In this document: one piece after another, positions 8,310-46,299 of the stretch | Numbering within the stretch: the first letter of the stretch is position 1 | Layout of the letters: every line of letters starts with the position of its first letter | Assembly (NCBI RefSeq): GCF_947331435.1 | Contig: NZ_CAMZOF010000001.1 | Coordinates: forward strand, 930,001-994,000 | Length of the DNA: 64,000 bases | DNA from: Pelagibius sp. Alg239-R121 | GTDB taxonomy: Bacteria; Pseudomonadota; Alphaproteobacteria; Kiloniellales; Kiloniellaceae | Direction of reading: 5' to 3' | Made by a program: the position numbers and the translations under genes | The notes under the pieces: model-generated | What the model saw: only the letters and a program-made list of their open reading frames with translations | What the model was told of the DNA's origin: nothing | The model's database searches: none

Positions 8310-8358
8310 AGAGCCTGACCGGTTTTCACTCAATCAGTGAAGAACGCGAATCAGTCTC
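8310..8358. repeat. Intergenic palindromic repeat, copy in tandem pair
   Basis: Forty-nine bp starting AGAGCCTGACC and ending CGAATCAGTCTC, with an inner stem TTTTCACT / AGTGAAGA (one mismatch) around CAATC. It closely resembles the copy before the tRNA (36436-36484) in length and ends. It lies 14 bp from the next copy, in the gap between the binding-protein and livF genes. Confidence 0.7.
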
Positions 8359-8372
8359 CCTTTTATAAAGTT

Positions 8373-8422
8373 AGAGGGCGGTTCACGCCCTTGATCGCTT
8401 CAATCAAGGACGATCGCGCTCT
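8373..8422. repeat. Intergenic palindromic repeat, 50-bp copy
   Basis: Fifty bp, AGAGGGCGGTTCACG at one end and CGATCGCGCTCT at the other, with a perfect inner stem CCTTGAT / ATCAAGG. It is 37/50 identical to the copy at 30345-30394 with no gaps, and two stem pairs differ by compensatory changes. It lies just downstream of the binding-protein gene stop, so it may also act as a 3' hairpin for that transcript. Confidence 0.8.
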
Positions 8423-8435
8423 AAGGGTTACTGGT

Positions 8436-9755
8436 TTATGAGCTGCAGTTGTTGGTCGCGAGACCACGCTCAGCTGCGATTTTTGCTGCTTCTTCTTCGA
8501 TCAGCGGGCGGACCACGTCTTGCATGGGTTCGATCCACTCAGTGGATTTTTCCCACTTCGCGCCGTCCCACTTCTTCAGATAGACCGGATGGCTACCCTC
8601 GTGGTCCTGACAGGTCACGTTGATCGGGTTGGTGAAGCCAGCGAGGCCAAGCGCATCAAGGCGCGCATTGTCGAGAACGATGTTCTCCAGGCCCCAACGC
8701 ATTTCCTCGCCCGTGATCGCGCGGTTGCCGAACTTGCCTTGGGCAGTCCGGATCGCTTCACTGACGACCACCGCGTTGAAGACGCCGCGGTTGTAGAGCG
8801 TTTCGCCGACCATAGAGTCGGGAGTCTGAGACCCATCCTTACCGACAACCTGATCACGGAGATCCTTGAACAGTGGCCAGCCATCGCCCACGCCGTGGAA
8901 GTCGCCAGCCAGATAACCAGCGGCTTTTTCCCCGGCATCGCGGACGTCGGACTCGTTTCCGGACCACCAGACACCAATGAAGCGTTCCATCGGGAAGTCG
9001 ACGTCGACGGCGCCCTTCATGGCGGTCGGGTTCATTGCGCCCCAGCCCCACATGAACAGCCAGTCAGGCTCATCCGAATCGATCTTTTCCCAGGTGGACC
9101 GCTGATCCTGCATGGTCTTTGGCGGTACCGGATAAGTCACGAAATCGAAACCGTGGGTCGCCGACAGAGCTTCCAGCGTCGGAATGGGTTCCTTGCCGTA
9201 AGGATGGTCAAGATGGATCAGACCGATGGTCTTGCCTTTCAACTTATCCATTCCACCTTCCTGGTCCGCCACGTACTTGACGAAGACGGAAGCCTGGCTC
9301 CAATAGGTGGTCGGCAGATTGAACACCCACGGGAAGACACGTCCGTCAGCCGCCGGCGTCAGGCCGTAACCCATCGAGAGTACGGGAATTTTATCGCCAT
9401 TGGTCTTTGGGATAATGGCGTTGGTGATGCCGGTGCTGTAGGGGTTGTAGACGACCGCGCCTTTGGTTTTCGTCCGCTCGTAGCACTCGACCCCGACGTC
9501 GGTCTTGTAGCCGGTTTCGCATTCCTCGACGACCAATTTGACGCCATTGATGCCGCCATCTCGCGCGTTGAGCAGCGCGAAGTAATCAGACATTCCGTTG
9601 GCGATTGGCGTACCACTATCGGCAAAGGCGCCGGTGCGGTATGTCAGCAGCGGAATGTAGATGCCGTCTTCAGCTTGGGCCGTGGTCAGCGCGCCGCTCA
9701 CAGCGCCCGACGCGGCCACTGCCGCGACCGCCGCGGCTAGGGTTAAACGTTTCAT
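8436..9755 (-). CDS. Periplasmic substrate-binding protein of a Liv-type ABC transporter
   Basis: A 439-residue exported protein with a Sec signal peptide (MKRLTLAAAVAAVAASGAVS, cleavage probably after TTAQA). The mature part is a type I periplasmic binding protein (GIYIPLLTYRTGAFADSG, GAVVYNPYSTGITNAI, HLDHPYGKEPIPTLEAL). It captures the ligand for the LivHM permease. Such proteins in clusters with CoA ligases often bind aromatic, fatty or other carboxylic acids rather than amino acids; that is inference from context. ATG at 9755 was preferred to the one two codons earlier because it starts the basic n-region. Confidence 0.9.
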   Translation of the reverse strand: MKRLTLAAAVAAVAASGAVSGALTTAQAEDGIYIPLLTYRTGAFADSGTPIANGMSDYFALLNARDGGINGVKLVVEECETGYKTDVGVECYERTKTKGAVVYNPYSTGITNAIIPKTNGDKIPVLSMGYGLTPAADGRVFPWVFNLPTTYWSQASVFVKYVADQEGGMDKLKGKTIGLIHLDHPYGKEPIPTLEALSATHGFDFVTYPVPPKTMQDQRSTWEKIDSDEPDWLFMWGWGAMNPTAMKGAVDVDFPMERFIGVWWSGNESDVRDAGEKAAGYLAGDFHGVGDGWPLFKDLRDQVVGKDGSQTPDSMVGETLYNRGVFNAVVVSEAIRTAQGKFGNRAITGEEMRWGLENIVLDNARLDALGLAGFTNPINVTCQDHEGSHPVYLKKWDGAKWEKSTEWIEPMQDVVRPLIEEEAAKIAAERGLATNNCSS

Positions 9756-9879
9756 CGTCATCTTTGATCCTCCCAGGTCAATTTTATCTAGATGATTATA
9801 TTACGTTATTTGTATTTTCCGAACAGTGTTGGTCTTTCCTCATCTGTCGAACGTCCCCACTCGGCTGGCAATCCCATGA

Positions 9880-10950
9880 TTAGTAAGGGAACGGCCAGAG
9901 GCGGAGTTTTTCCTTCGCGATCTGCCACAATCGGGCCAGCCCGTTTGGCTCAACGATCAGGAAGAACACGATCAACGCGCCGAAAATCATGAATTCCAGG
10001 TGCTTGGCCAGATCGGACGAGATTGGCAAACCAAGCAAATCGGGGGCATTGGTCAAAATAATCGGAATCATCACGATGAAGGCTGCCCCCATGAATGAGC
10101 CGGCAATACTTCCCAGACCGCCGATGATGACCATGAAGAGAACCTTGAACGACAGATTGATGTCAAAAAGGTCCGGTTCGGCGCTATCGTAAAACAGAAA
10201 TAGCATCAGACTTCCGGCAACGCCGCTGTAAAAGGCGCTGATCGCGAAGGCGAGGAGCTTGGTCGGCAAAGGCCGGATACCGATAATCTCGGCGGCGATG
10301 TCCATATCGCGTATTGCCATCCACGCCCGTCCAATAGCAGAGCGTACAAGGTTCTTTGCGAGTAGAGCAAAAACCGACACAAAGGCCAGGGCGACATAGT
10401 ACTTGGCGAAAGGCTCGGCGTTGGGACCCGTGACCAGATACCCGAAGACCGTCTTAGGCACGCCTTCGATTGCGGTACTTGAGTTGGTAAACCAGTCGAC
10501 CCGCAGGAACAGCCAGTCGAGAAAGAACTGCGCAGCCAGGGTCGCGACCGCCAGATAAAAGCCCTTGATGCGCAAACTGGGAAGGCCGAAAACAATACCC
10601 ACTGCCGCTGCAATCAAGCCGGAAATCAGGAAGACAAGGATGATGCTCAGGTCGGGGAAAATCACGGCCAATTTGTAACTGGCAACCGCTCCCACGGCCA
10701 TGAACCCACCGGTTCCCAGAGAGATCAGTCCGGTATATCCGGTCAGGATATTCAAGCCTATGGCGGCCAGCGAGAAAAACAGGAAGTTGATCATGATGAT
10801 CTCGAGGAAGTAATCACTTCCGAACGCTGGGATGATCACCCACGCAAAGAGCAACACGATCGCCATGCCGATTCTGTCCTGGCGGATCGGGAAGATCGCC
10901 TGATCGGCAACGTAATTGGTTTTAAACTGGCCAGCTTCGCGATAAAGCAT
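9880..10950 (-). CDS. Liv-type ABC transporter permease (LivM family)
   Basis: A 356-residue inner-membrane permease with about ten hydrophobic segments and LivM landmarks (GYTGLISLGTGGFMAVGA near the start of the core; GLGSIAGSFMGAAFIV near the end). It forms half of the membrane channel with LivH. It begins 6 bp after the livH stop, so co-translation is likely. Confidence 0.92.
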   Translation of the reverse strand: MLYREAGQFKTNYVADQAIFPIRQDRIGMAIVLLFAWVIIPAFGSDYFLEIIMINFLFFSLAAIGLNILTGYTGLISLGTGGFMAVGAVASYKLAVIFPDLSIILVFLISGLIAAAVGIVFGLPSLRIKGFYLAVATLAAQFFLDWLFLRVDWFTNSSTAIEGVPKTVFGYLVTGPNAEPFAKYYVALAFVSVFALLAKNLVRSAIGRAWMAIRDMDIAAEIIGIRPLPTKLLAFAISAFYSGVAGSLMLFLFYDSAEPDLFDINLSFKVLFMVIIGGLGSIAGSFMGAAFIVMIPIILTNAPDLLGLPISSDLAKHLEFMIFGALIVFFLIVEPNGLARLWQIAKEKLRLWPFPY

Positions 10951-10956
10951 CGTTCA

Positions 10957-11955
10957 CTACACCCTTTCGATGATTTTTTCGCCAAAGAGGCCTTGGGGTC
11001 GGAACAGCAGGATGATCAATGCGATCACATAGCCGATCCACTGCTCGACGCCGTCGCCCAGGACACCGCGCCAATAGAACTCCGCCAGTTTCTCGGTAAC
11101 GCCGATAATCATGCCGCCTAGAATTGCGCCCGGCACCGACGTAAAGCCGCCCAGGATCAAAACGGGAAGTGCCTTGAGCGCGATAACCGCCAGTGAGAAC
11201 CCGGCCTGACTCTGTGCGCCCCACATGACGCCGGCGAAGATGGCAACCAGCCCAGACAGCGTCCAGACCACGACCCAGATGAAGGGAAGAGGAATGCCGA
11301 CCGAGAGCGCAGCCTGATTGTCGTCTGCGACTGCCCGTAGGGCGCGGCCAATCTTGGTGCGGTTCAAGAATACGATAATTCCGGCCACCATGAGGCCGCC
11401 CGCAATCAGAGCGGTCAGATCAAGCTGATAAATCCGTACGGGCTTTCTGAAGACATCTCCCAGAATCTTAAACTTGCCGTCCGGGATTGCCAACGCGTCG
11501 ATGGGCACTGGTTTTGGGTCTGCGCCAAAGATTGTCTGGCCGAAACCTTCCAAAAAGAACGCCAGCCCAATGGTCGCCATAAATAGAATGATACCGGGTT
11601 GATTGACAAGAGGCCGCAGCACCATGCGCTCGATCGCGAATGCCATGGCCCCCATCACCACGATGGCAAGCAGGACAGCAGCAATGGCTGGCACTCCGAT
11701 TTCAATCAGGCTGACCACGGTCAATCCGGCGAACACCACCATGATGCCCTGCGCAAAGTTGAAGACACCCGAGGCTTTGAAGATTACGACAAATCCGAGC
11801 GCGACCAGCGAATACATCACGCCGGCACTCAGACCCTGAGATACGATTTGGATGAGTTTGTCCGGGCGATCGTAAAAGGCAATGAAGGGATCAACGAAAA
11901 GGCCACCGATGAAAGTCGAGGCGACCGTGATCAGATCGAATGACGTGCCATCCAT
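10957..11955 (-). CDS. Liv-type ABC transporter permease (LivH family)
   Basis: A 332-residue permease with the LivH motif region SQGLSAGVMYSLVALGFVVI, FNFAQGIMVVF, RALRAVADDNQAA and GGFTSVPGAILGGMIIG. It pairs with LivM. It carries roughly 30 extra N-terminal residues compared with short LivH proteins. It lies 61 bp downstream of livG. Confidence 0.92.
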   Translation of the reverse strand: MDGTSFDLITVASTFIGGLFVDPFIAFYDRPDKLIQIVSQGLSAGVMYSLVALGFVVIFKASGVFNFAQGIMVVFAGLTVVSLIEIGVPAIAAVLLAIVVMGAMAFAIERMVLRPLVNQPGIILFMATIGLAFFLEGFGQTIFGADPKPVPIDALAIPDGKFKILGDVFRKPVRIYQLDLTALIAGGLMVAGIIVFLNRTKIGRALRAVADDNQAALSVGIPLPFIWVVVWTLSGLVAIFAGVMWGAQSQAGFSLAVIALKALPVLILGGFTSVPGAILGGMIIGVTEKLAEFYWRGVLGDGVEQWIGYVIALIILLFRPQGLFGEKIIERV

Positions 11956-12016
11956 AACTTAAAGCACCCAACAAAAAGACAGGGACAAGGAAGTTCTCAA
12001 TGAAAACGGAGTCCGA

Positions 12017-12865
12017 TCAGTCATGGCTGACCCCCAGATAGGCGTCGATGACCTGCTTGTTGGCCCTTACTTCGGAAGGTGTGCCGTCGGCAAGCAGGCG
12101 GCCGTAGTCCAGAACCACAACCCGATCCGAAATGTCCATGACGACGCCCATGTCGTGCTCGATCAGGGCGATTGTCGTGCCGAACTCGTCATTTACGTCG
12201 AGGATGAAGCGGCACATGTCCTCTTTTTCTTCGACGTTCATGCCCGCCATGGGTTCGTCGAGAAGCAAAAGCTCTGGCTCCATGGCCAGAGCACGGCCGA
12301 GCTCGACGCGCTTTTGCAGACCGTAAGGAAGTCGGCCCACCGGTGTTTTTCGGATCGCCTGGATTTCCAGGAAGTCGATGATGGCCTCGACCTTTTCGCG
12401 ATGCTCCAGCTCTTCCTTCAGAGCCGGTCCCCAGTACAGCGCCTGCCAAAGGAAATTGCGGCGCATTCTGAGCAGACGCCCGGTCATGATGTTGTCGAGC
12501 GTCGACATGCCTTTGAAGAGAGCAATGTTCTGAAAGGTCCTTGCGATCCCGGTCTTTGCCGCCTCGTGGGGTCGCATCTGATGACGTGCGTTGCCCTTGT
12601 AGGTGATCGTGCCTTCTTGTGGATGATAGAAGCCGTTGATCACGTTGAGCATCGAGCTTTTGCCGGCGCCGTTCGGGCCAATGATCGCCCGAATTTCATG
12701 CTTCCGGATATCGAAGGATATGTTTGAGAGCGCTTTAACGCCGCCAAAGGACAGACTGATGTCTTCGACCTTCAACAGTTCTTCACTGAAGTTGCGGCGC
12801 GCAGCGGGTGCGGGACCTTCGCTCTGCACCGGTGGCACTGGGCGTTCGAGAGTTGCAGCGGTCAT
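12017..12865 (-). CDS. Liv-type ABC transporter ATPase (LivG family)
   Basis: A 282-residue ABC ATPase with Walker A GPNGAGKSS, the LivG insert (TFQNIALFKGMSTLDNIMTG onward), signature LPYGLQKRVELGRAL, Walker B LLLLDEPMAGMN and LIEHDMGVVM. It starts with an unconserved 27-residue Pro/Ala-rich tail. It is the first transporter gene after the acyl-CoA ligase, 15 bp downstream of it. Confidence 0.92.
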   Translation of the reverse strand: MTAATLERPVPPVQSEGPAPAARRNFSEELLKVEDISLSFGGVKALSNISFDIRKHEIRAIIGPNGAGKSSMLNVINGFYHPQEGTITYKGNARHQMRPHEAAKTGIARTFQNIALFKGMSTLDNIMTGRLLRMRRNFLWQALYWGPALKEELEHREKVEAIIDFLEIQAIRKTPVGRLPYGLQKRVELGRALAMEPELLLLDEPMAGMNVEEKEDMCRFILDVNDEFGTTIALIEHDMGVVMDISDRVVVLDYGRLLADGTPSEVRANKQVIDAYLGVSHD

Positions 12866-12880
12866 CTGGCCAGAAATTCC

Positions 12881-14842
12881 TCAGCTTGCCTGCTTCAATG
12901 GTTCGGTCGTGGCGTAAGTCTCGGCATCGATGATCTGCAGATTTGCTTTGATCATACCCTTGCGTCCATCCTCGAAGGTGACTTCGGTCTCGATGTCGAC
13001 CGTTTTGGAGCCGCCGTATAGCCCTTCGACCAGCGGGGCGTACCGATCAGCAATAAAGCTGCGCCGGACTTTTTGCGTCCGGGTCAGTTCACCGTCGTCG
13101 GCGTCCAGTTCCTTATGCAGAATGAGGAATCGCTTGATCTGGGCGCCCGAGAGATTGGGGTCGGACGCCAAGTCTCGGTTCACCTGCTCGACATGGGCGG
13201 TGATTGTTTTGCTGACGTCCGGATTTTCGGCCAACTCCTGATAACTGGCGTAGGCGATGTTGTTGCGCTCCGCCCAGTTGCCAACGGCCACCAGGTCGAT
13301 ATTGATAAATGCCGCGCAGAAATCCTGGTCGTGTCCAAAGGCTACTGCTTCCTTGATGTCGGGAAAGAACTTCAGCTTGTTCTCGACATACTTGGGCGCC
13401 ATAAGCGCGCCGCTGTTCAGCCGGCCGACATCCTTGGCGCGATCGATGATTTTCAGGTGGCCATCATCGGCGAAAAAGCCTGCGTCGCCTGTGTGAACCC
13501 AGCCATCATCTGTCTTGGTTTCCGCAGTGGCTTCGGGATTTTTATAGTACTCGACGAAAACGCCCGGGCCGCGAAACAGAACCTCGCCGGAATCGGCAAT
13601 CTTGATATCGACACCCGGCGCCGGTTTGCCGACTGTGTCCGCCTTGATTTCACCGTCAGGTTGGATGGTGATGAAAACAGAAGCTTCCGTGCTGCCGTAA
13701 AGTTGCTTCAGATTGATGCCCAGCGAACGATAGAAGTCGAAGATATCGGGGCCGATGGCTTCACCGGCGGTGTAGGCTAGCCGGATGCGGCTGAAACCCA
13801 GGACGTTCTTCAGCGGACCGTAGATCAGAACATTCCCCAGAGCGTAGAGGATTCGATCGCTGAAGGAGACCGGTTCGCCGTTCAGGATGGCAATTCCACA
13901 ACGTTTCGCCACATCCATGAAATACCTGAACATTTTGCGCTTCAGGCTGCTGGCGTCTTCCATGCGGATCAGCACGCTGGTCAAAATGTTCTCGAAAATC
14001 CTAGGTGGTGCGAAGAAGTAACTCGGTCCGAGTTCGCGCAGATCGTGCATAACAGTGTCGCCGGATTCGGGGCAGCTGACGCAGAACCCGGCGGCATAGC
14101 TTTGACCAAAGGAGAAGATGTTGTCGCCGACCCAGGCCATCGGGAGATAGGCCAGGACTTCTTCGTCGGCCGTCAGGCCTTCGAAAGTCACGCTGTTTTT
14201 TGCCGTCTGAAGGACATTGTCGAAGCTGAGGACCACACCTTTCGGACGCCCCGTTGTACCCGAAGTGTAAAGCATGATGGCGGTATCGCTGCCGACGCTT
14301 TTGGCAACCTCTGCGTCATAGAAGTCCGGATGCTCATCTGCAAAGGCGCGGCCTCTTTCCTGAACCGCTTCGAAGTTGCTAAGAGAATCTTCGCTGTAGT
14401 CGCGCAGACCACGCGCGTCGTCGTAGATGATCTGTTCGAGCCTAGGGCAGCTTTCGCGGATTTCCGTCAACTTGTCGACCTGCTCCTGGTCTTCGACCAT
14501 GGCGAAGCGTACTTCGGCGTGCTCGATGACGTAGGACATCTCTTCAGCCACCGAATCCTGATAGACGGGGACTGGGATCGCGCCGATAGCTTGTGCAGCG
14601 GTCATGGTCCAATAGAGCCGTGGCCGATTATCGCCGACAATCGCGATCTTATCACCACGCGTCAGTCCCATCGCGGCGAGCCCGCAGGCGAGAGCCTTGA
14701 TCTCTTCGGCTACCTCGAGCCAGGTCCAGGCCTGCCAGATGCCAAACTGCTTTTCACGGATCGACGGTTTGTCACCGCGTGTTCGCGCATGATCGATCAA
14801 GAGTTTGGGAAAGGTGTCCAGATTCGAGCCAGCTACGTTCAT
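12881..14842 (-). CDS. AMP-dependent long-chain acyl-CoA synthetase-like protein
   Basis: A 653-residue adenylating enzyme of the long-chain acyl-CoA synthetase group. The AMP-binding P-loop IMLYTSGTTGRPKGV, LYGSTEAS, GWVHTGDAGFF and KDVGRLNSGALMAPKYVENK are all in place. It forms acyl-CoA from a carboxylic acid, ATP and CoA. I chose ATG 14842 because CAGGA lies about 8 bp upstream; in-frame ATGs at 14851 and 14875 are alternatives. It heads the transporter cluster, whose last gene is a second CoA ligase, which suggests import-coupled activation. Specific substrate unknown. Confidence 0.87.
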   Translation of the reverse strand: MNVAGSNLDTFPKLLIDHARTRGDKPSIREKQFGIWQAWTWLEVAEEIKALACGLAAMGLTRGDKIAIVGDNRPRLYWTMTAAQAIGAIPVPVYQDSVAEEMSYVIEHAEVRFAMVEDQEQVDKLTEIRESCPRLEQIIYDDARGLRDYSEDSLSNFEAVQERGRAFADEHPDFYDAEVAKSVGSDTAIMLYTSGTTGRPKGVVLSFDNVLQTAKNSVTFEGLTADEEVLAYLPMAWVGDNIFSFGQSYAAGFCVSCPESGDTVMHDLRELGPSYFFAPPRIFENILTSVLIRMEDASSLKRKMFRYFMDVAKRCGIAILNGEPVSFSDRILYALGNVLIYGPLKNVLGFSRIRLAYTAGEAIGPDIFDFYRSLGINLKQLYGSTEASVFITIQPDGEIKADTVGKPAPGVDIKIADSGEVLFRGPGVFVEYYKNPEATAETKTDDGWVHTGDAGFFADDGHLKIIDRAKDVGRLNSGALMAPKYVENKLKFFPDIKEAVAFGHDQDFCAAFINIDLVAVGNWAERNNIAYASYQELAENPDVSKTITAHVEQVNRDLASDPNLSGAQIKRFLILHKELDADDGELTRTQKVRRSFIADRYAPLVEGLYGGSKTVDIETEVTFEDGRKGMIKANLQIIDAETYATTEPLKQAS

Positions 14843-15607
14843 CCAAGCCATCCTGTTGGGAGACCGGAACGGCATAGTCGCCGCACGCCGGATGAGGTCG
14901 AGGCATTTTCCCCGAAAAGGCGTAGTGAATTTTGCGCCGCTACGCCGGCCTCCCGCAATTTGTTTGTAGTCACATGTTTGGTTAGTGACTTTGTGTCAAC
15001 GCGGAACAGGTAAGTTGATTCTCGGGCACAGGTCAAGAGCTAGTCGCATGTCGTGAATTTCTTTGGACATGCATACTCGTTTATAGGGTTTTTGCTTCTG
15101 ATCGTGCAATCGTAGCAGCAAGAAAACCTAAATTCGATTCGCGATACAGGATTGATATTCCATAATAAGATATAGTTTCATCGGTAACTAACTGATCGCA
15201 ATATCTTTCTATCGAATTGTAGTTGTGTGCAGCGCAGTGAGGTCGACGGGGTGACAGGTGGGTGCACTTGAGGGCCCTAAAATGCGCAGTTTCCCGAAAT
15301 TCAGGGATATCGCGGAATTGTGATGTAGCGGTCTGGCCGCGGTGCCTCGCATATGATCTTGAAATTTGTCTTTTTGGTTCAAATGGGCCGGGGTCATGGT
15401 GCAGTGCACATGCATATGGCCCACAGCGTTAAATCCATACCTTTCCGGTATTTCTCGCACTGCGGTATTGGTTTCTTCACGACGTGAGACTATGTTGTGC
15501 GCGCATTTCGATGGCGGTTGTGCGGGAGGTCGGAGGTGGATCTTGCCCGGGCAGCTTTTCGCCGTTTCGAAGAAGACCAAACCAGCGAATTTGAATGGAG
15601 GCTGTCC
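14843..15607. other. Divergent intergenic region, acyl-CoA ligase / acnA
   Basis: About 765 bp separate the two divergent genes. The part from 15050 to 15220 is markedly AT-rich and should hold promoters for both directions, but I could not fix a -35/-10 pair with proper spacing. Short palindromes occur (GTGCAGTGCAC around 15400). No convincing small gene is visible. Confidence 0.45.
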
Positions 15608-30272: not shown

Positions 30273-30344
30273 GGGCGCTGACTCGAGCCTAACACCAAGT
30301 ACCCCTAATTTTGTCCTCGTTTTTAGACTCTGCGTTATTTGATT

Positions 30345-30394
30345 AGAGAGCGATTCACGTTCTTGACTGTAACGGTCAAGAACGATCGCACTCT
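30345..30394. repeat. Intergenic palindromic repeat, 50-bp copy
   Basis: Fifty bp, AGAGAGCGATTCACG at the left end and CGATCGCACTCT at the right, with a perfect 9-bp stem GTTCTTGAC / GTCAAGAAC. Aligns gap-free with 8373-8422 (37/50 identical). It lies between the phosphatase-like gene and rpoH, about 170 bp before the rpoH start, so it may end one transcript or lie in the rpoH upstream region. Confidence 0.8.
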
Positions 30395-30566
30395 ATACCG
30401 CGTTAACACAAAAAAGTTCGCACTCATGCGAGTTGTGTGTTTTTATACTATCATAAGTAGAGATCAGCAGTAGAAACCGACACTGCATTCTGTTTTGGTG
30501 ATCTATCGGCGGCCAACCTGCGTACAGAAATCGTGGTGTTCGCAAAAACCGAGAGGTACCGCTGTT

Positions 30567-36435: not shown

Positions 36436-36484
36436 GGAGCCTGATTCACGCTTTTCGCTGACTTAGCGAAAAACGATCAGACTC
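36436..36484. repeat. Intergenic palindromic repeat immediately upstream of tRNA-Arg
   Basis: Forty-nine bp, GGAGCCTGATTCACG to CGATCAGACTC, with inner stem CTTTTCGCT / AGCGAAAAA (one mismatch). It ends 3 bp before the first base of tRNA-Arg, so it fills the place where a promoter would normally sit; it is probably transcribed as the 5' leader of the pre-tRNA. Confidence 0.75.
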
Positions 36485-36487: not shown

Positions 36488-36564
36488 GCGCCCGTAGCTC
36501 AGTTGGATAGAGCACAGGATTCCTAATCCTGGGGTCGCAGGTTCGAATCCTGCCGGGCGCACCA
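36488..36564 (+). tRNA. tRNA-Arg (anticodon CCT)
   Basis: A 77-nt tRNA with the CCA end encoded. Acceptor stem GCGCCCG pairs with CGGGCGC, discriminator A. D-arm contains AGCTCAGTTGGATAGAGC, anticodon stem CAGGA/TCCTG encloses loop TTCCTAA giving anticodon CCT (reads AGG), and the T-arm carries GGTTCGAATCC. All stems pair well. The 3' end is followed by tandem sequence that resembles its own 3' portion. Confidence 0.97.
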
Positions 36565-36696
36565 TTTCCTTCGAAATGGACGCCCTTTGGTTTAAATGAG
36601 GGTTCGAACTTTGTTCGAACAGGCGCACCACTTCTTCTGAAATGGACGTCCTGCTATTTGTATGAGGGTTCGAACTTTGTTCGAACAGGCGCAACA
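36556..36696 (+). repeat. Tandem 66-bp repeat derived from tRNA 3' end
   Basis: Two consecutive 66-bp units (36556-36621 and 36622-36687; 55/66 identical) and the start of a third (36688-36696). Each begins GGCGCACCA, equal to the tRNA acceptor end, and contains GGGTTCGAACTTTGTTCGAAC, in which the T-loop octamer GTTCGAAC appears twice. The last 26 bases of the two units are identical while the middle differs. It looks like repeated duplication or integration at the tRNA 3' end. No integrase gene is nearby. Confidence 0.8.
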
Positions 36697-36717
36697 TTCA
36701 TTGGATATTCGAAAAGC

Positions 36718-36755
36718 AAAAAGCCGGGCGGCGGCCTCTGCCACTGCCCGGCTTT
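36718..36755. terminator. Bidirectional terminator between tRNA repeat and chemoreceptor gene
   Basis: Stem AAAGCCGGGC / GCCCGGCTTT with a 16-nt loop. On the minus strand it is followed by TT then GCTTTTC, giving a U-rich tail for the chemoreceptor transcript; on the plus strand TTT ends the stem. Confidence 0.75.
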
Positions 36756-36834
36756 GAATTGAGTAGGTAACCTGCGGCGCCGCTTTAACGTGGCGCCGCT
36801 TTATAGAGGCGGTGTCGGATTGAGGATCCGGCGG

Positions 36835-39554: not shown

Positions 39555-40190
39555 TCAATCGAAATCCGTGGCCAAAGCCGGATTGCGATGATGCTCGAAC
39601 ATCCTGCTGATCTGTGCTTCCAGGACCCTGCCGCGCGACAATTCCGGCAGGTCGGTGGCTTCGAAAAATCCAACCTCACTGGTTTCGACGCTGGGCCGGG
39701 CATCGCCGCCAAGCAGCTCGCAGATGAAGAACATCTTGTAGATATGAAATGGATGCGGCGGCTCGTGGGGGTGCTTGAGCCGGTCGTAAACGGCCGCCAG
39801 CTTGGTGACCCTGGCCCGATAGCCCGACTCTTCGAATATCTCCCGCTCGACATTTTCGCTGGGCGAGGCATTGACGTCAGCCCAGCCGCCGGGCAACGCC
39901 CACTTGCCGTCGGTGATTTCTTTGACCAGCAAGATGCGCTCGTCACGGATCACAACACCTCGCACGTCGACCTTGGGTGTGGCGTAACCGGTTTCGCCGT
40001 CGAAGAGGGCGGTCACGGCGTGCGCATCGGCTTCACCGATGGCCGCCAGCATTTCGACGGCAAGGGCGCGGGCCGCCTGATAGCGCTCGATGTCATAGGG
40101 ATCACTTGCGAAGGTCAGTCCGGTCTGTGCCAGGGCCTGCAGCTGGCGCGCCCAAGTCAGGCGCCTGGATTCCGTATATTTCAGTGCCAT
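39555..40190 (-). CDS. Nudix hydrolase with N-terminal accessory domain
   Basis: A 211-residue protein. The N-terminal helical part ([35 protein letters not shown]) is the accessory domain seen in a group of ADP-ribose-type Nudix enzymes; the Nudix fold follows with [17 protein letters not shown] and REIFEESGY. The box keeps the RE-x-x-EE core while the first Glu position is Ala. Probable hydrolase of a nucleoside diphosphate derivative. ATG 40190 ([10 protein letters not shown]) has AGGAG about 12 bp upstream; in-frame ATGs further up (40229, 40262) are less likely. It is divergent from yjbQ. Confidence 0.83.
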
Positions 40191-40278
40191 CTTGGATCCG
40201 GACTCCTGTGGTGTTGATGCTATGAGCATCTTTCTTGAATCGTCGACAGGTGATGCTTCCAAAGGCTAGGTTTACGCC

Positions 40279-40698
40279 ATGCAGCAATCGCAAACCACCG
40301 TCATGATCCCAACCACCAGGCAGGGTCTGATCGATATAACGGCTGAGGTTTTGAACTGGTTAGAGGGAACCGGTATCCAGGATGGTTTGCTGACCCTCTT
40401 CTGCCGCCATACTTCAGCTTCGCTCACCATCCAGGAGAATGCCGACCCGGACGTGCAGCGGGACCTGGAGACTTTCTTCAGCCGGATGGTTGCCGAAGAT
40501 CCCGCGCTCTATCGTCATACCGCAGAGGGACCGGATGACATGCCGGCGCATATCCGCGCTGCCCTGACACAAACGCAGCTCTGTATTCCAGTGCAGGGGG
40601 CGCGTCTTCTGTTGGGCACCTGGCAGGGGATCTATCTCTTCGAGCACCGGCGCGCGCCGCATCGGCGTCAAGTGGCATTGCATCTGATTGGATCGTAG
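40279..40698 (+). CDS. YjbQ/UPF0047 family protein (secondary thiamine-phosphate synthase-like)
   Basis: A 139-residue protein matching the YjbQ family: LLTLFCRHTSASLTIQENADP with conserved His and Asn/Asp, HTAEGPDDMPAHIRAALT, and LLLGTWQGIYLFEHR. E. coli YjbQ has a low thiamine-phosphate synthase activity and structural homologues form trimers; the true role is unclear. It starts a short plus-strand run with a rhodanese and methylglyoxal synthase. Confidence 0.88.
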   Translation: MQQSQTTVMIPTTRQGLIDITAEVLNWLEGTGIQDGLLTLFCRHTSASLTIQENADPDVQRDLETFFSRMVAEDPALYRHTAEGPDDMPAHIRAALTQTQLCIPVQGARLLLGTWQGIYLFEHRRAPHRRQVALHLIGS

Positions 40699-40786
40699 TA
40701 ACCTTGGGGACAGCGGCGACGCGTGCATGTTATAGCTGTTTTCTGGTTTTCCAGTTTTTAGTAACGAAGCAACAGGAACAGAATTC

Positions 40787-41188
40787 ATGGCCTTGAAGAT
40801 CGGTGTGGCGCAGATGGTTGCCGAAGCGGAAAAGGAGATCGAAACGCTTTCGATCGATCAGGCGCTGGCCGCGAAAAACGATCCCAATGTTCTGTTCGTC
40901 GACCTGCGGGATGTGCGCGAGCTGCGCCGCGAAGGCAAGGTTCCCGGCGCTAAGCATTGCCCGCGTGGCCTTCTCGAATTCTGGGTCGATCCGGACAGCC
41001 AGTATTACGATGCCGAATTCGGATCCGGAAAGAAGCTGGTGTTTTTCTGTGCCATGGGCTGGCGTTCGGCGCTCGCGACCCAGACCGTTCAGCGAATGGG
41101 TCTGGAGCCGGTGTCTCATATCGAAGGTGGTTTCACCGCCTGGAAGGCAGCCGGCGGCGCTGTCGAGGAACCTGCGCCACGCTCGTAA
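40787..41188 (+). CDS. Single-domain rhodanese-like sulfurtransferase
   Basis: A 133-residue rhodanese with LFVDLRDVRELRREGKVPGA and the active-site loop CAMGWRS (Cys as sulfur acceptor in FFCAMGWRSALATQ), ending GGFTAWKAAGG. It transfers sulfane sulfur between thiols in the cytoplasm. About 20 N-terminal residues precede the domain. It lies between yjbQ and mgsA with spacers of 88 and 72 bp. Confidence 0.9.
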   Translation: MALKIGVAQMVAEAEKEIETLSIDQALAAKNDPNVLFVDLRDVRELRREGKVPGAKHCPRGLLEFWVDPDSQYYDAEFGSGKKLVFFCAMGWRSALATQTVQRMGLEPVSHIEGGFTAWKAAGGAVEEPAPRS

Positions 41189-41260
41189 GCTGCGCCATGT
41201 TCGTAACCCGCATCACATAACAAAAGCAGAAACCCATTCCAGTTTCGGAGGACAGAAACC

Positions 41261-41701
41261 ATGAGCGTTACAGCAAAAAACATCGCTCTGGTGGCGCATG
41301 ACCAGATGAAGCGAACGCTGGTTGAATGGGTCGCTACAAATGCCAACGCATTGGAACCGCACCGTCTTTGGGCGACCGGTACGACGGGGACGAACGTTGC
41401 CGCGCGCTGTCCCTCGCTTCAGATTTCCTTGCTCAAGAGCGGCCCGCTCGGAGGCGATCAGCAGCTTGGCGCCATGATCGCCGAGGGAAAACTGGACGTC
41501 CTGTTCTTCTTTATGGATCCGATGACGTCCCTGCCGCATGACGTCGATGTGAAAGCTCTGACCCGGTTGTCGACACTCTATAACGTGATCTTTGCCTGCA
41601 ATAGCGCCAGCGCGGACTTCATTATTTCGAGTCCATTGTTCGAGACCGATTATCAGCGCCGTCAGCGGGACTATAACGACTATGTTCAGCGCAATATCTA
41701 A
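41261..41701 (+). CDS. mgsA: Methylglyoxal synthase
   Basis: A 146-residue protein of MgsA length. Conserved elements are ALVAHDQMK near the N-terminus, ATGTTGT, SGPLGGDQQLGAMIAEG (with the catalytic Asp in GDQQ), and FFMDPMTSLPHDVDVKALTRL. It converts dihydroxyacetone phosphate to methylglyoxal and phosphate, a bypass that relieves sugar-phosphate stress. GGAGG-type sequence (CGGAGGAC) lies about 12 bp before the ATG. Confidence 0.94.
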   Translation: MSVTAKNIALVAHDQMKRTLVEWVATNANALEPHRLWATGTTGTNVAARCPSLQISLLKSGPLGGDQQLGAMIAEGKLDVLFFFMDPMTSLPHDVDVKALTRLSTLYNVIFACNSASADFIISSPLFETDYQRRQRDYNDYVQRNI

Positions 41702-41800
41702 GGGCTTGGACAAGCGAGATAATTCCAAGTGCCGGAGAGAGAGCGACCGTTCTTTACGGGAACGGCCGAGAACATAGGTCGCCCAATATCAATATGACGC

Positions 41801-41848
41801 AGAGACCGTCTTGAGTTTTTCACCGATTTAGAGAAATCGATCCGATCT
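41801..41848. repeat. Possible decayed palindromic repeat
   Basis: Forty-eight bp, AGAGACC to CCGATCT, whose central part TTTTCACCGATTTAGAGAAA resembles the matching part of the copy at 36436 (TTTTCGCTGACTTAGCGAAA). Outer arms no longer pair. Treated as a decayed member. Confidence 0.35.
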
Positions 41849-41952
41849 AGCTGTTGATCGAACCTAAAGGATTCCAAATAGATTCATCTTGGACTAACCT
41901 TTACGCCGGCTTAGCGATCGGGTTTTCCAATATGACGCAAAGCAGTTCGGAA

Positions 41953-43851
41953 ATGAGACAGCGAGCCAGGATAGGGCTTCTCTCTGTGTGTCTGATGGCC
42001 ATGGGAATTGTCGTGACATGGACGCCGCAAGCGGCGATCGCGCAGGACAAGCCCTCCGCTACTCTCGATCCATACGAGGTTCGTCTGTTCGACGAAACCA
42101 ATTTTTCCGGACGCATGCGCAGCCTCAAATTGGGCGTTGGAAAGGCCTACGCCTATTTCGAGCAGCTTGGTGACGAACAAGCCGAGAAAGTACGTTCACT
42201 ACAGGTTGGCGCGTCCATCGGCGTCGTTCTCTTTCGGCGTCCCTTCTTTGCGTCACAGGATAAAAGTTGCGCGGCGACTTTGGGCAGCGATGAACGGCCT
42301 GATTTGATCTGGACCGGAGTGACGGCGGAGTTTTTACCAGCGCCGCCGGAGAATGCATCAGGGAAGACCCGGTTAAGAGCCGGTGTTAACGAGCAGGCTG
42401 ATGCGGGTGAAGGCGGCTATGCTTCGGTGATCCTTTACCGGCGGGAATTTGGTCCACCGCCGGGTGCACTCTTGATGAAACGCCGTCGGTCCTATGGCAG
42501 GGGCTGTGGAAACATTCTGCGGTCGCTCAATTTCGATCGGCGTTTCGTGCCTCTCAACTTTCAGACCGGGCTCGCGAACAAGGCTTCCGCATCTGCGCAA
42601 CCGCGCGGGTGTGTGAACCTGAAGAGCGACGATGCAGCAGGGCTTTTAGGTATGCTCCGGAGCGACAGGATCGCATTGATGCAGCCGTCCGATCTCGACG
42701 CGCGTTATGCTCCCAGGGATCAACGCTTTCGGGTGGTGCTGTTCGACGGCGATGATTGTTTGGGTGATTCCGTAACGCTCAATGCAAACGCGAAGCAAAA
42801 AGAGGCCGTGGCTCCATCGCGCCTCGATCGACGCGATATTCTTCTTTCCAGCCTGCTGTTCAGGGATCGTGCGCGTTCCTTGCGGGTCGATCTTCCCGGC
42901 GCTGCCAGGAAAATCATCGCAAGGGCTGCGCCCGCCGCTGCTCCGACTGCTGCAGCGGGATCTGAGTCACTTGCCAAATCCAACGTCCAGGCCGCGCCCG
43001 AGGCACTTCCTAAGACAACGCATTCTGCCAAAGTGGAGCCAGCTACCAAGGTCGGTAAACTTGCGGCTGGCCAAAAGGCCGCACCGGTTGTCAAACCTGC
43101 CGCACCGCCAAAGACCGTTTCGGCCCAGCTGTCCGAACCCAAGCTCGTGACGCCCAAAGTCACGGCGCCAGCAGTTGCCAAGCCTAAGACGTCTGCGCCC
43201 GAGCTCGCGCCAGCAAGCGCCGGCTCCAAGCTCACGGCAGCGGAGCCAAAGGCTGTGCCGCAGACTGCGGCGGTTGTCGCGGCTCCGGAAAAAAAGGCTG
43301 TTCTGCCGACGGCGCGCCTGGACCCAATGAAAGATCTCTCGGGCACGCCCCAGGTCGCGGCAGCACCTACGACAGGCAACATCACTGCACAGCCGGCGGC
43401 TCCGATAGCTTCCGCCTCGAATCAGGCGCTGAGAACGGAGTCTCCGAGCTCTCCTGCCAAGACTCAGCTTTCTCAACCCAAACCAGCCAATCCCGAGCCG
43501 GTTCGAACGCAATCAACGCCAACCCAATCAACTCTAACGCAGTCATCCCAGGCTCAGGCTGCATCGCAACCAGCCACACCTGGCACCGCGGCTCCGTCCG
43601 ATGCCGGAAATGAGGTTTTCACTTTCCCGGTTTACGATGTCTATCGCTTGAATTTCTGTATGAACAGCAAGGGGGAGTGCGGTGAGCCGGTTGCCGCCAA
43701 GTGGTGTAAGATGAAGGGCTACGAACGCGCTGTGGCTTGGCAGAAAGATAATAATATCGGCGGCCTCTTTCCGACTTTCCTCATCGGTGAAGAGAGGATA
43801 TGCGCGCAGTACAAATGCGATGGTTTCACGGAGATTACCTGCGGCCGCTGA
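41953..43851 (+). CDS. Secreted modular protein: crystallin-like N-terminal region, long Pro/Ala/Lys linker, six-cysteine C-terminal domain
   Basis: A 632-residue exported protein of unknown function. A signal peptide (about 1-31, ending QAAIAQ) is followed by segments resembling beta/gamma-crystallin Greek-key motifs: YEVRLFDETNFSGRMRSL (from about 41) and FRVVLFDGDDCLGDSVTL (from about 259), each followed by a SL-V strand (VRSLQVGASIGVVLF; ARSLRVDL). Residues about 326-570 are a Pro/Ala/Lys/Ser/Thr linker. The last 60 residues hold six cysteines (NFCMN, GECGEP, KWCKMKGY, RICAQ, YKCDGF, ITC), probably a disulfide-stabilised extracellular module. ATG 41953 was chosen for the signal peptide; 41932 and 41854 are in frame. 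The crystallin likeness is by eye only. Confidence 0.7.
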   Translation: MRQRARIGLLSVCLMAMGIVVTWTPQAAIAQDKPSATLDPYEVRLFDETNFSGRMRSLKLGVGKAYAYFEQLGDEQAEKVRSLQVGASIGVVLFRRPFFASQDKSCAATLGSDERPDLIWTGVTAEFLPAPPENASGKTRLRAGVNEQADAGEGGYASVILYRREFGPPPGALLMKRRRSYGRGCGNILRSLNFDRRFVPLNFQTGLANKASASAQPRGCVNLKSDDAAGLLGMLRSDRIALMQPSDLDARYAPRDQRFRVVLFDGDDCLGDSVTLNANAKQKEAVAPSRLDRRDILLSSLLFRDRARSLRVDLPGAARKIIARAAPAAAPTAAAGSESLAKSNVQAAPEALPKTTHSAKVEPATKVGKLAAGQKAAPVVKPAAPPKTVSAQLSEPKLVTPKVTAPAVAKPKTSAPELAPASAGSKLTAAEPKAVPQTAAVVAAPEKKAVLPTARLDPMKDLSGTPQVAAAPTTGNITAQPAAPIASASNQALRTESPSSPAKTQLSQPKPANPEPVRTQSTPTQSTLTQSSQAQAASQPATPGTAAPSDAGNEVFTFPVYDVYRLNFCMNSKGECGEPVAAKWCKMKGYERAVAWQKDNNIGGLFPTFLIGEERICAQYKCDGFTEITCGR

Positions 43852-43881
43852 CCTGAATTTTGAAAGCGGCCTACAAAAAAG

Positions 43882-43910
43882 AAAAAGGGGCAGCCTGTTG
43901 GCTGCCCCTT
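43882..43910. terminator. Bidirectional rho-independent terminator
   Basis: Perfect 11-bp stem AAGGGGCAGCC / GGCTGCCCCTT with loop TGTT. On the minus strand it runs into TTTCTTTTTTG, a good U-tract for the alsT transcript; on the plus strand GTCATTT follows. It separates the convergent secreted-protein and alsT genes. Confidence 0.88.
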
Positions 43911-43934
43911 GTCATTTCAAGTCAGTGGACTGTA

Positions 43935-45485
43935 TCAGCTGTGCTTGAACTTCCGAATTTCCCCTGATGAAAGCCGAGCGGTGTATTGCTCAAGTTCGGC
44001 TTTTACGAACGGCATCAGGACATAGAGACCGATCACATTCGGGATCGCCATGGCAAAGATCATGGAGTCGGAGAAATCGATCACCGGTCCGAGAGTCATG
44101 CTCGAGCCAAGAACTACGAAGAGACAGAAGACGATCTTGAAGATCATCTCCATGCGCTTGTCTTCGCCGACCAGATAGGTCCAGGCTTTCAGGCCGTAAT
44201 AGGACCAGGAAATCATGGTCGAAAAGGCAAAGAGGATCACGGCTACCGCCAGAAGAAGCGGGAACCAGGAGAACGCGCTTTCAAAGGCGCTGGAGGTCAG
44301 CGCCACGCCGGTCAGGCCACTGCCGAGTTGTCCCGTGATAATAATAACCAACGCAGTCATGGTGCAGATGACGACCGTGTCGATGAACGGCTCGAGCAAG
44401 GACACGAAACCTTCAGTGATCGGTTCCTTGGTCCGCACCGCGGAGTGGGCGATGGAGGCTGAACCGATGCCGGCTTCATTGGAGAAGGCAGCCCGCTTGA
44501 AGCCCTGGATCAGTGCGCCGACCACGCCACCGGCAACACCGGCTCCGGTGAAGGCACCGGCAAAGATTTCGCCGAAAGCCCAGCCAACCATGTCGTAGTT
44601 CATCAGGATGATGACCAGCGCGGCACCGACATAGATAACGGCCATGAAAGGAACGACCTTTTCCGTGACCCGTGCGATGGACTTGATGCCGCCGATGATG
44701 ACTACGCCGACAATCACCGCCATGACGATGCCGAAGAGCCAGCCTTTGTCAGCGAAGAAGCTTGCTTCGCCTCCTGTGACATTGACGAACTGCTGGAAGG
44801 ATTGGTTGGCCTGGAACATATTGCCGCCGCCAAAGGCACCGCCGATACAGCAGATCGCGAAGAAGATGCCCAGCCCCTTGCCCAGCCCCGGCATGTTTTT
44901 AAGGCCAAAGCCCTTTTCCAGGTAATACATCGGGCCGCCAGAGACGGTTCCATCGCCGTACTCGTTCCGGAATTTGACACCCAGTGTGCACTCCGTGAAC
45001 TTGGAGGCCATGCCCAGCAAACCCGCGAGGATCATCCAGAAGGTTGCACCGGCGCCGCCGATGGAAACCGCGACCGCAACACCCGCGATGTTGCCGAGGC
45101 CCACCGTACCCGAGAGCGCGGTCGCAAGCGCCTGGAAGTGGCTGACCTCGCCCGCGTCATCCGGATTGGCATAATCCCCTTTGACCAGCGAGATCGCGTG
45201 TCCGAAATATCTGAACTGGATAAAGCCGAAGTAGAGGGTAAAGATTGTTGCTGCGACAACCAGCCAGCCGACAATGAGCGGGAAGGCCGTATCGCCGACA
45301 GGTACGGAGTAGAAAATGACGCTGACGATCGCGTTTGAAACCGGTGAAATCGCTGCGTTGATCTTTTCGTCGATTCCCATCGCTGCGTCCTGTGCCTGCG
45401 CGATGGACGGCAGGAGCGCGAGAAACGCGGCCACTGCCAGGACTGGCGCCTGAAACAAGCGCCGGAAGTTACAAATTTCCCCCAT
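43935..45485 (-). CDS. Sodium:alanine/glycine symporter, AlsT (AGCS) family
   Basis: A 516-residue transporter with about eleven membrane helices and AGCS signatures: [48 protein letters not shown] and [17 protein letters not shown]. It imports alanine or glycine with sodium. It begins with what looks like a signal peptide (LLPSIAQAQ about 23-31), as in some marine homologues. It follows uspA by 52 bp on the same strand, and an Lrp-type regulator is divergent from the pair, a natural candidate for control of amino-acid uptake. Confidence 0.92.
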
Positions 45486-45537
45486 GATGGTCTCCTAGAG
45501 AATTCTTCAAGTGTTGGAAGAGGTGCCGATTTTTTGT

Positions 45538-45972
45538 TTATGGCACGACAGTGATGGGAACAGGTGCGATCTGCACCAGCGTGCCCGGTACCGACCCGAA
45601 AAACCGCGCGGCCATATCTGATCCACCATGGCGGCCGACGATGATTTGCGTTGCGCCGACTTCCTTGGCGACGTCGCAGATGACATCGGGGATTTTTCCG
45701 TAACGAATGACACCGTGGGTCGAGAGACCCGAGCCTTCCAACTCTTTGAGCAGTGGCGCCATGATTTGGCTCGAGGCGAGTTCCACCTCTTCTTTGCGCC
45801 GCGCGTGACGCTTTTCCAATTCCTCTGGTGTCAGGAAGCTGTAGGGCGACCATTCCAGCACATAGACGATATGGACTTCCGCGTTGTCCGACTTTGCGCG
45901 CTCAAGTGCGAAGTCGAGGGCCCGCTTGCCGTCCTTTGTTCCGTCGAATCCGACGATGAACACATTCGACAT
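45538..45972 (-). CDS. Universal stress protein (UspA family)
   Basis: A 144-residue single Usp domain starting MSNVFIVGFDGTKDGKRAL with VVYVLEW-type second strand and the ATP-binding loop GRHGGSDMAARFFGSVPGTL followed by ITVVP. Proteins with G-2x-G-9x-G-S/T bind ATP and signal stress or energy state. ATG 45972 has a perfect GGAGGT 4 bp upstream; the frame stays open a further 47 codons but without homology. Usp genes next to Na-dependent transporters are common and may modulate them. Confidence 0.92.
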   Translation of the reverse strand: MSNVFIVGFDGTKDGKRALDFALERAKSDNAEVHIVYVLEWSPYSFLTPEELEKRHARRKEEVELASSQIMAPLLKELEGSGLSTHGVIRYGKIPDVICDVAKEVGATQIIVGRHGGSDMAARFFGSVPGTLVQIAPVPITVVP

Positions 45973-46117
45973 GATACCTCCTTGTTGATTGTATTCCGAC
46001 CTATAGGCGCATCCGCTGGCCGATTTCGCTCTTTGGTTGTTCATCTGGCCAGCTATAACCAGAAGGGTCAACTTTACCTGGAGCATAAGATAACTAAGTA
46101 TCAGCAAATTCAATGTG

Positions 46118-46132
46118 TTAAAATAGGGTTAA
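46118..46132. promoter_or_regulatory. CtrA-type box between uspA and lrp
   Basis: TTAAAATAGGGTTAA fits TTAA-N7-TTAA exactly, 146 bp upstream of uspA and 228 bp upstream of the lrp start. The region is AT-rich, so a chance match is more likely than for the other two boxes. Confidence 0.35.
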
Positions 46133-46249
46133 AGTACTATTTACTAGAGAAAAAAACTACTTTTATGGTAAAAATAGATAATATCACGGTTATGGATAAA
46201 TCTGTCGCCAAAATCTCAAGGAAAAACGGCAAGATTGGTGAATTTCGCT

Positions 46250-46299
46250 AGAGCGTGCTCGATCGTGATGGGAAGAGTGAAGACGATGGAAGACCCTCT
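46250..46299. repeat. Intergenic palindromic repeat, 50-bp copy
   Basis: Fifty bp from AGAGCGTGCTCGATCGT to the CTCT end, with 14 of 18 outer positions able to pair across the element (TAGAG/CTCTA and GATCGT / GACGAT). Same length as the 8373 and 30345 copies. Lies 60 bp before the lrp start. Confidence 0.65.

What the first reader, a model, noticed from the sequence alone, without database searches (positions are those of the whole stretch)
8310..46299. Family of about 50-bp intergenic palindromic repeats with compensatory stem changes
Copies at 7324-7370, 8310-8358, 8373-8422, 30345-30394, 36436-36484 and 46250-46299 (weaker: 41801-41848, 5712-5742, perhaps the centre near 4073-4095) share AGAG...CTCT-type ends and a central hairpin of varying sequence. 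The 8373 and 30345 copies align over 50 bp without gaps (37/50). Two paired stem positions changed together: 8389/8409 is C-G but 30361/30381 is T-A; 8395/8403 is T-A but 30367/30375 is C-G. This points to selection or copying as RNA/DNA structure. All copies are intergenic, two in tandem. It may be a REP-like or non-autonomous mobile element, or a processed small RNA.
Basis: partly seen in the sequence, partly recalled or inferred. Interest (0 to 1): 0.72.

Follow-up and report, generated by a model that had tools for sequence, protein, structure and literature searches.

The report
Twin-hairpin mobile repeat of Alphaproteobacteria
The repeats are copies of a small two-hairpin DNA element that has no genes of its own, is scattered between the genes of many Alphaproteobacteria, most likely moves like an IS630-type transposon, and seems to keep its hairpins matched by copying one arm onto the other rather than because it works as an RNA.

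Summary
The family is real. The 'tandem' copies at 8310 and 8373 are halves of one ~115-bp element (8309-8423): hairpin A, a ~12-nt linker, and hairpin B, which resembles A inverted. The host genome (inferred Kiloniellaceae) gives 150 listed matches, a capped count. A model finds it in 37 of 385 sampled class genomes (own included) and in Sinorhizobium and Rhizobium plasmids. Ends read TAGAG...CTCTA; the preferred site is C|TA|G. One Rhizobium insertion, compared with empty sites, shows TA duplicated at CTAG. IS630-family elements in four carrier genomes share the TA-GAG(C/T) tips, so I read it as an IS630/Tc1-mariner-type MITE of CIR/RIME-like design. The transposase is inferred; IS481-family neighbours that also end at CTAG leave a rival. 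A RAYT link fails: 13 of 24 carriers have none. Stem covariation is very strong, but G.T and A.C mismatches are equally frequent. In 18 near-identical copies from one relative, compensatory pairs occur only in the three copies that also lost a 3-nt bulge. Arm-to-arm copying therefore explains covariation better than RNA selection.

The parts
8309..8423 (+). Complete composite element: hairpin A 8309-8359, linker 8360-8371, hairpin B 8372-8423
   Evidence: R1 110.2 bits, E 2e-28 (part of the training set); lies between called genes 7447-8286 and 8436-9761, both minus
30283..30395 (+). Composite element: decayed hairpin A, well-kept hairpin B at 30344-30395
   Evidence: R1 67.6 bits, E 1e-16 (not in the training set); consensus-B score 76
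41737..41849 (-). Composite element, decayed
   Evidence: R1 57.7 bits, E 5e-14 (part of the training set)
36437..36484 (-). Single A-type hairpin, ending 3 nt before tRNA-Arg (36488-36564)
   Evidence: R1 42.8 bits, E 7e-10, model positions 3-50; tRNA
7323..7371 (.). Weak single hairpin with outer-type tips (TAGAG..GATCG) on both sides
   Evidence: Consensus-A score 41 on both strands; R1 32.5 bits over 7323-7402
46249..46323 (-). Doubtful, very decayed copy
   Evidence: R1 17.6 bits, E 0.005

Best explanation
The repeats are decayed copies of a non-autonomous, IS630/Tc1-mariner-type mobile element about 115 bp long, built of two inverted, related hairpins joined by a linker. Outer ends read TA-GAG(C/T)NNGATCG. 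Insertion is preferentially at C|TA|G with duplication of TA. A transposase acting in trans, most likely of an IS630-family insertion sequence with the same TA-GAG(C/T) tips, cuts and pastes it. Single-hairpin derivatives, which look like internal deletions, have also multiplied, so the tips seem to be what matters. The arms of each hairpin are now and then rewritten from one another by template switching. This removes mismatches, makes two-sided 'compensatory' changes in one step, and lets inner stems drift to unrelated sequence while staying palindromic. Shown: family, structure, distribution, recent multiplication in a relative, CTAG preference, one exact TA duplication (in a Rhizobium relative), arm-homogenised copies. 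Inferred: the IS630 transposase as mover, template switching as the arm-copying mechanism, and loss of activity in this host.
For: Copies and model. Distribution, own genome counted: R1 in 24 of 58 and 18 of 289 class genomes; R2 in 37 of 385 class genomes (11 of those 37 had given copies to the model) and 27 of 398 phylum genomes, all 27 in the same class. Recent spread: 12 fetched copies ~98% alike in relative G025 at unrelated sites, c before TA in 12/12 and g after in 10/12. Host: C before in 27/39, G after in 23/39. TA duplication: Rhizobium sp. BT04 reads GAGGTCC-TA-element-TA-GGGGATC; three of six fetched related plasmids read GAGGTCCTAGGGGATC. Only TA, not all of CTAG, seems to be duplicated: in 40 copies of relatives the base after the left TA is G in 40/40, while the base after the right TA is not G in 7. 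IS630 (DDE_3) elements in G025 (two types), G331, G023 and G291 end in TAGAGC or TAGAGT. ISY100, of this family, inserts at TA and duplicates it (PMC2170065, abstract and passages). Single-hairpin copies and arm-homogenised copies in G025. Flanking-gene mix in the host equals the window's background.
Against: No element with TAGAGCNNGATCG ends that could be the autonomous partner was found in G025 (60 hits; the one inward-facing pair 0.8-3 kb apart joins a composite and a single-hairpin copy with an IS481-family IS between them). The carrier G048 has no DDE_3 match and the host only an 88-aa frame. IS630 tips agree with the element over only about 6 bp including TA, and the DDE_3 loci L164 (G026) and L168 (G291) show no such pair of ends. 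Neighbouring IS481-family elements in G025 also end at CTAG, so IS630 is not the only CTAG-using candidate. The other two polymorphic Rhizobium sites are not clean CTAG cases: five fetched empties read TCAG at the Norway site and two read TGA-type at the NZLR1 site. The TA duplication is shown in a Rhizobium relative, not in the host. Only two distinct double-change events underlie the arm-copying argument.
Confidence: 0.75

Rival explanations
1. Mobile, but moved by an IS481-family (rve integrase) transposase that also targets CTAG.
For: Three G025 copies (L117, L118, L122) abut repeats whose other copies also end at CTAG. The genes in them are IS481-family: NF033577 above cut-off for two, below it for the third. 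From recall, IS481 targets NCTAGN.
Against: The IS481 end seen beside L118 reads TGTGGAGCC, not TAGAG. The base after the right TA differs from that after the left TA in 7 of 40 copies of relatives, against a 4-6-bp duplication. The IS481 elements may simply have used the CTAG at element ends, or the reverse; the order is undetermined.
Confidence: 0.1
2. REP/BIME/REPIN-type repeats moved by a RAYT (Y1 tyrosine transposase).
For: Inverted pairs of hairpins, intergenic, many copies, and two PF01797 genes in the own genome.
Against: No PF01797 match in 13 of 24 carriers, including single-contig G025 with near-identical copies; presence 11/24 in carriers against 18/34 in non-carriers. No element within ~1.5 kb of the two own RAYT genes. 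TA duplication at CTAG.
Confidence: 0.04
3. A structured RNA (sRNA, processed transcript, terminator or mRNA stabiliser) under selection for folding.
For: Strong covariation: 307 two-sided cells against 75.1 in shuffles, 95.3% of cells paired.
Against: G.T and A.C mismatches equally frequent: 98 against 110 (p 0.45) and 21 against 27 (p 0.47); this loses power if copies are transcribed in both directions. No enrichment at gene ends: 22 co-directional, 7 divergent, 7 convergent, 3 undetermined, against 23/7/6 in the window. No Rfam family at gathering score in the window except a tRNA.
Confidence: 0.07
4. A host-useful DNA site (CcrM/GANTC methylation or protein binding), as speculated for CIR repeats, retained by selection.
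For: GANTC lies in the inner arm of both hairpins: 29 and 28 of 33 copies chosen across lineages. CIR repeats carry GANTC (PMC2229807, passages).
Against: In the host GANTC is intact in only 23 and 18 of 37 copies, and its bases are not better kept than the outer GATC. Positions look like passive accumulation.
Confidence: 0.08
5. It is mobile, but the paired changes come from selection during transposition (only well-paired copies move) rather than from arm-to-arm copying.
For: L257 and L223 share one double change, so paired variants do multiply.
Against: One-sided changes are common in recent copies (25 in the stems of 18 copies), while the only two distinct double changes lie in copies that also lost a TCA bulge; two or more complementary doubles arise in 0.19% of random placements.
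Confidence: 0.25

Closest known systems
CIR repeats of Caulobacter and Brucella (Chen and Shapiro 2003; paper not held, seen through passages of the review PMC2229807)
   Same: ~110 bp, intergenic, alphaproteobacterial, two long inverted-repeat arms joined by a linker, TA at the termini, GANTC present
   Different: The review puts GANTC at or partly in the terminal loop of one arm; here it sits in the stem at a 3-nt bulge of both arms. The review lists the target duplication as unknown and says more information on mobility is needed. No CIR sequence was compared here.
RIME1/RIME2 of rhizobia (Osteras et al. 1995; paper not held; size and two-palindrome description recalled)
   Same: Sinorhizobium meliloti 1021 pSymB holds R2 matches of 114-117 bp with both arms in 4 of 8 fetched stretches
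   Different: Published RIME sequences could not be compared, so whether those matches are RIMEs is not shown; similarity to the window element is in tips and structure
RUP of Streptococcus pneumoniae
   Same: 107 bp, intergenic, TA target, ends like those of IS630-Spn1, insertions found in IS elements (PMC2229807, passages)
   Different: Per that review such repeats form one stem from their two ends and lack the two arms and linker; distant host
REPINs/BIMEs (PMC3116915, passages)
   Same: Paired inverted units forming hairpins, tandem clusters, mobilisation in trans
   Different: RAYT-linked, with elements beside the RAYT; no such link here

Membership tests
IS630/Tc1-mariner-type MITE | Insertion at TA with TA duplicated | tested here: met
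   Filled/empty comparison at the BT04 site, three identical-site empties of six; only TA appears duplicated; two other Rhizobium sites not clean. Not shown in the host itself
IS630/Tc1-mariner-type MITE | Terminal inverted repeats shared with an IS630-family element | tested here: inconclusive
   IS630 elements in four carrier genomes share TA-GAG(C/T) tips only, two other DDE_3 loci do not; no partner with the 13-bp tip in G025
IS630/Tc1-mariner-type MITE | Mobilised by the IS630 transposase | not testable with these tools
   Needs a transposition assay
IS481-type MITE | IS481 ends and a duplication of 4-6 bp around CTAG (recalled) | tested here: not met
   Element ends TAGAG, IS481 end TGTGG; flank bases beyond TA not duplicated in 7 of 40
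REP/REPIN-RAYT | Cognate RAYT in the genome, usually beside elements | tested here: not met
   13 of 24 carriers have no PF01797 match; none near own RAYTs within ~1.5 kb
CIR | Two inverted-repeat arms plus linker, ~110 bp, TA ends, intergenic, GANTC | tested here: met
   features from PMC2229807
CIR | GANTC at or in the terminal loop of one arm | tested here: not met
   GANTC is in the stem at the bulge, in both arms
CIR | Sequence homology to published CIR1-4 | not tested
   Paper not held; no named Caulobacter chromosome at hand
RIME | Presence of the same model in Sinorhizobium intergenic repeats | tested here: inconclusive
   R2 hits in 4 of 8 pSymB stretches, but the record carries no repeat annotation

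The most novel reading that the evidence does not exclude
CIR, RIME and the Kiloniellaceae repeats are one class-wide superfamily of 'self-correcting' twin-hairpin transposons. Only the ~11-bp tips and the bulge are under selection. Template switching keeps each hairpin perfect while its inner sequence drifts freely, so the family produces textbook RNA-like covariation without being an RNA. The conserved 3-nt TCA bulge marks inner ends (GATTC instead of GATC), so the two hairpins normally move as a pair.
Probability: 0.35. Interest if true: 0.66.

Novelty: new variant of a known kind. Interest (0 to 1): 0.5.

Why it matters
A 2007 review (PMC2229807, passages) says more information is needed on how CIR-type repeats move; the CTAG/TA evidence supplies a testable mechanism for a look-alike family. 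It also offers a case where strong compensatory covariation seems to arise in mobile DNA without RNA function. That is a trap for structure-based RNA discovery: in one S. meliloti screen 56% of 186 candidate sRNA loci lay in intergenic regions holding repeats such as RIMEs (PMC2573895, passages). Near-identical copies such as those in G025 let one look at arm-to-arm copying directly.

Tried and rejected
RAYT link: tested and rejected. RNA selection: tested by G.T against A.C balance and gene context, not supported. GANTC-specific selection in the host: not supported. Terminator or promoter role: no bias in intergenic type. Autonomous partner with the same 13-bp tip in G025: none. Nested insertion as the cause of tandem arrays: rejected for C2:328772-329340, whose first four units share 113-116 of 116 bases, so duplication fits better. 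At the 8309 site same-genus relative G002 holds a relic hairpin, not an empty site; G003 has an element-like insertion at the 5712-equivalent site that G001 lacks. Sites of G025 copies in G048/G343 were too diverged to serve as empty sites. BLASTN of five element variants against plasmids gave nothing; two variants hit one record each; the Rhizobiaceae variant hit 423 records. Candidates 5712 and 4073 were dropped.

What counts leave out: A2 holds 37 of the 68 scan hits; second-strand hits and several partial or lower-scoring copies were dropped (among them L035, L044, L046, L039, L045, L026:1979 and window 30283-30395). A3 holds 33 copies picked from the best matches of 19 genomes. Pairing percentages are therefore not genome averages. 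The 18 composites leave out, of the G025 places fetched, the truncated L252 and L265, the diverged L259 and L262, the single-hairpin copies, the 26-bp L256 and the chance hits L248, L251 and L255. R2 was trained on copies from 11 of the 37 class genomes that it hits. How many of the 398 phylum genomes lie outside the class was not listed. Large genome searches used stricter filters that lose weak matches.

Changed on checking: the neighbours of three G025 copies proved to be IS481-family elements, so an IS481 rival was added and confidence lowered from 0.80 to 0.75.
Full report
OBSERVATION. BLASTN of 8290-8440 lists 40 places in the 8.02-Mb own genome (40 of 80 candidates scored), 71-92% identical apart from itself; many of the best cover both 'tandem' copies as one ~112-bp unit. 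The consensus unit is hairpin A (51 nt), a ~12-nt linker and hairpin B (52 nt). B resembles the reverse complement of A: AGAG-N-[5 bp]-TCA bulge-CG-[~10-bp inner stem]-loop-...-CG-ATC..-CTCT. In the composite the bulged arms face inward, so outer ends read TAGAGNNNGATCG and inner ends TAGAGNNNGATTCACG.

STRUCTURE AND COPY NUMBER. A model of 37 host copies (R1) lists 150 matches in the own genome (only 150 of 2281 candidates scored, some matches partial, at least two repeating a place). In the window it finds 8309-8423, 30283-30395, 41737-41849 (minus), 36437-36484 (minus, one hairpin, 3 nt before tRNA-Arg), a weak 7323-7402 and a doubtful 46249-46323. On the 37 host copies 24 of 42 pairs show two-sided change, with 76 such cells against 31.3 in shuffles; 83.7% of cells pair against 80.2% in shuffles. 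On 33 copies from 19 genomes (A3) 95.3% of cells pair against 72.8%, 35 of 42 pairs show two-sided change, and there are 307 two-sided cells against 75.1 in shuffles and 37-55 in slid controls. Inner stems differ between lineages, while tips, bulge and outer GATC are kept.

HOST AND DISTRIBUTION. An exact pattern found 8 stretches in the species-genome collection: five labelled uncultured Kiloniellaceae, two a Rhodospirillaceae MAG, one Denitrobaculum tricleocarpae. A contig length shared by G002 and record CANLSF010000002.1 suggests that the same-genus relative G002 is one of those Kiloniellaceae assemblies, so the host is inferred to be Kiloniellaceae. Counting the own genome, R1 matches 24 of 58 relatives and 18 of 289 class genomes. 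R2, built on A3, matches 37 of 385 class genomes, 31 of 276 genera; 11 of the 37 had given copies to the model. It matches 27 of 398 phylum genomes, all 27 in the same class. A Rhizobiaceae variant matches 423 plasmid records, mostly Rhizobium (361) and Sinorhizobium (42). In S. meliloti 1021 pSymB, 4 of 8 fetched 50-kb stretches hold R2 matches.

MOBILITY. In relative G025 (one contig) 12 fetched copies are about 98% alike at unrelated sites; c precedes TA in 12/12 and g follows in 10/12. In the host C precedes in 27/39 and G follows in 23/39. CTAG is rare there: 38 against 239 expected in the window. The clearest test is Rhizobium sp. BT04: filled GAGGTCC-[TA...TA]-GGGGATC, while Ta6, BT01 and R. 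indigoferae read GAGGTCCTAGGGGATC; the other three fetched plasmids read GTCTTAAGGG there. The duplication could be TA or CTAG on that evidence alone. In 40 copies of relatives the base after the left TA is G in 40/40, but the base after the right TA is not G in 7; in the host the corresponding case occurs in 16 of 39, with G kept on the left in 15 of the 16. That favours TA. Two other polymorphic sites are less clean: five fetched empties read TCAG at the Norway site and two read TGA-type at the NZLR1 site.

WHO MOVES IT. TA duplication with CTAG preference is the habit of IS630 (ISY100 paper PMC2170065, abstract and passages; the CTAG preference appears there only as a cited title). DDE_3 transposases were sought in nine carrier genomes: eight have a match, seven above cut-off, and G048 has none. 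IS630-family elements in G025 (two types, boundaries from copies), G331, G023 and G291 (boundaries inferred from inverted ends) end in TAGAGC or TAGAGT like the repeats; L164 (G026) and L168 (G291) do not show such ends. No partner with the repeat's own 13-bp tip was found in G025, and the host has only an 88-aa frame. Three G025 copies abut IS481-family elements whose copies also end at CTAG; two copies lie at the same IS end in opposite orientation, beside different IS copies. Which inserted first is unknown, and IS481 remains a rival mover. RAYT genes are not linked: 11 of 24 carriers against 18 of 34 non-carriers have one.

WHY THE STEMS COVARY. If folding as RNA were selected, G.U should be tolerated over A.C. 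They are equal: 98 and 110 in host copies, 21 and 27 across lineages, though mixed transcription would hide a bias. In 18 near-identical G025 composites there are 25 one-sided stem changes and 3 compensatory doubles (2 distinct events). The doubles lie only in L257, L260 and L223, each of which has also lost a TCA bulge; in L260 and L223 both changes are in one hairpin, in L257 they are in different hairpins. L126 shows the bulge copied into the other arm. Random placement gives two or more complementary doubles in 0.19% of simulations. Template switching homogenises inverted-repeat arms (PMC8604942 and PMC7202029, starts of abstracts in the listing only). Single-hairpin units of 63-65 bp (six B-type, one A-type) carry the outer tips, mostly lie between c and g, and share a variant with a composite (L250, L264, L126), so they too have multiplied.

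CONTEXT. By a home-made gene caller 35 of 39 composites overlap no gene by more than 20 bp, and the flanking-gene arrangement (22 co-directional, 7 divergent, 7 convergent, 3 undetermined) mirrors the window's intergenic regions (23/7/6). At the three Rhizobium sites examined the element's end lies on the stop codon of a neighbouring gene, as in 3 of 39 host copies: a TAG tip makes insertion into a CTAG stop harmless (inference).

COMPARISON. The design is that of CIR repeats as a review describes them: ~110 bp, two arms, linker, TA ends, GANTC (PMC2229807, passages). Here GANTC is at the bulge of both arms, and no CIR sequence could be compared. Behaviour resembles RUP. REP/REPIN membership fails. 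Searches for print showed only listings, some cut (10 of 1,608, 10 of 28); no listed title names such an element in Kiloniellaceae or an IS630-type twin-hairpin element in Alphaproteobacteria. The library lacks most subscription journals.

Noticed in passing
G000 C2:328772-329340 (L067): Head-to-tail array of five elements, 114-bp period; the first four units share 113-116 of 116 bases.
   Followed up: partly
G025 C1:3975037-3976281 (L118, L261): An IS481-family element about 1 kb long lies between a composite copy and a single-hairpin copy, both ending at its CTAG junctions.
   Followed up: partly
L256 (G025 C1:2474575-2474600): A 26-bp palindrome made of two outer tips fused, inner hairpin gone, still flanked c...g.
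   Followed up: no
window 1-64000: CTAG is strongly depleted (38 against 239 expected) and GATC in excess (525 against 239).
   Followed up: no
L047 1030-1860 and L048 1462-2130: Two RAYT-like Y1 transposase genes in the own genome with no element within ~1.5 kb.
   Followed up: partly
L270, L280, L281 and L033, L038, L041: The element end lies exactly on the stop codon of a neighbouring gene.
   Followed up: partly
L158 3000-3250 (G003), equivalent of window 5712: G003 carries an element-like insertion where G001 has none.
   Followed up: partly
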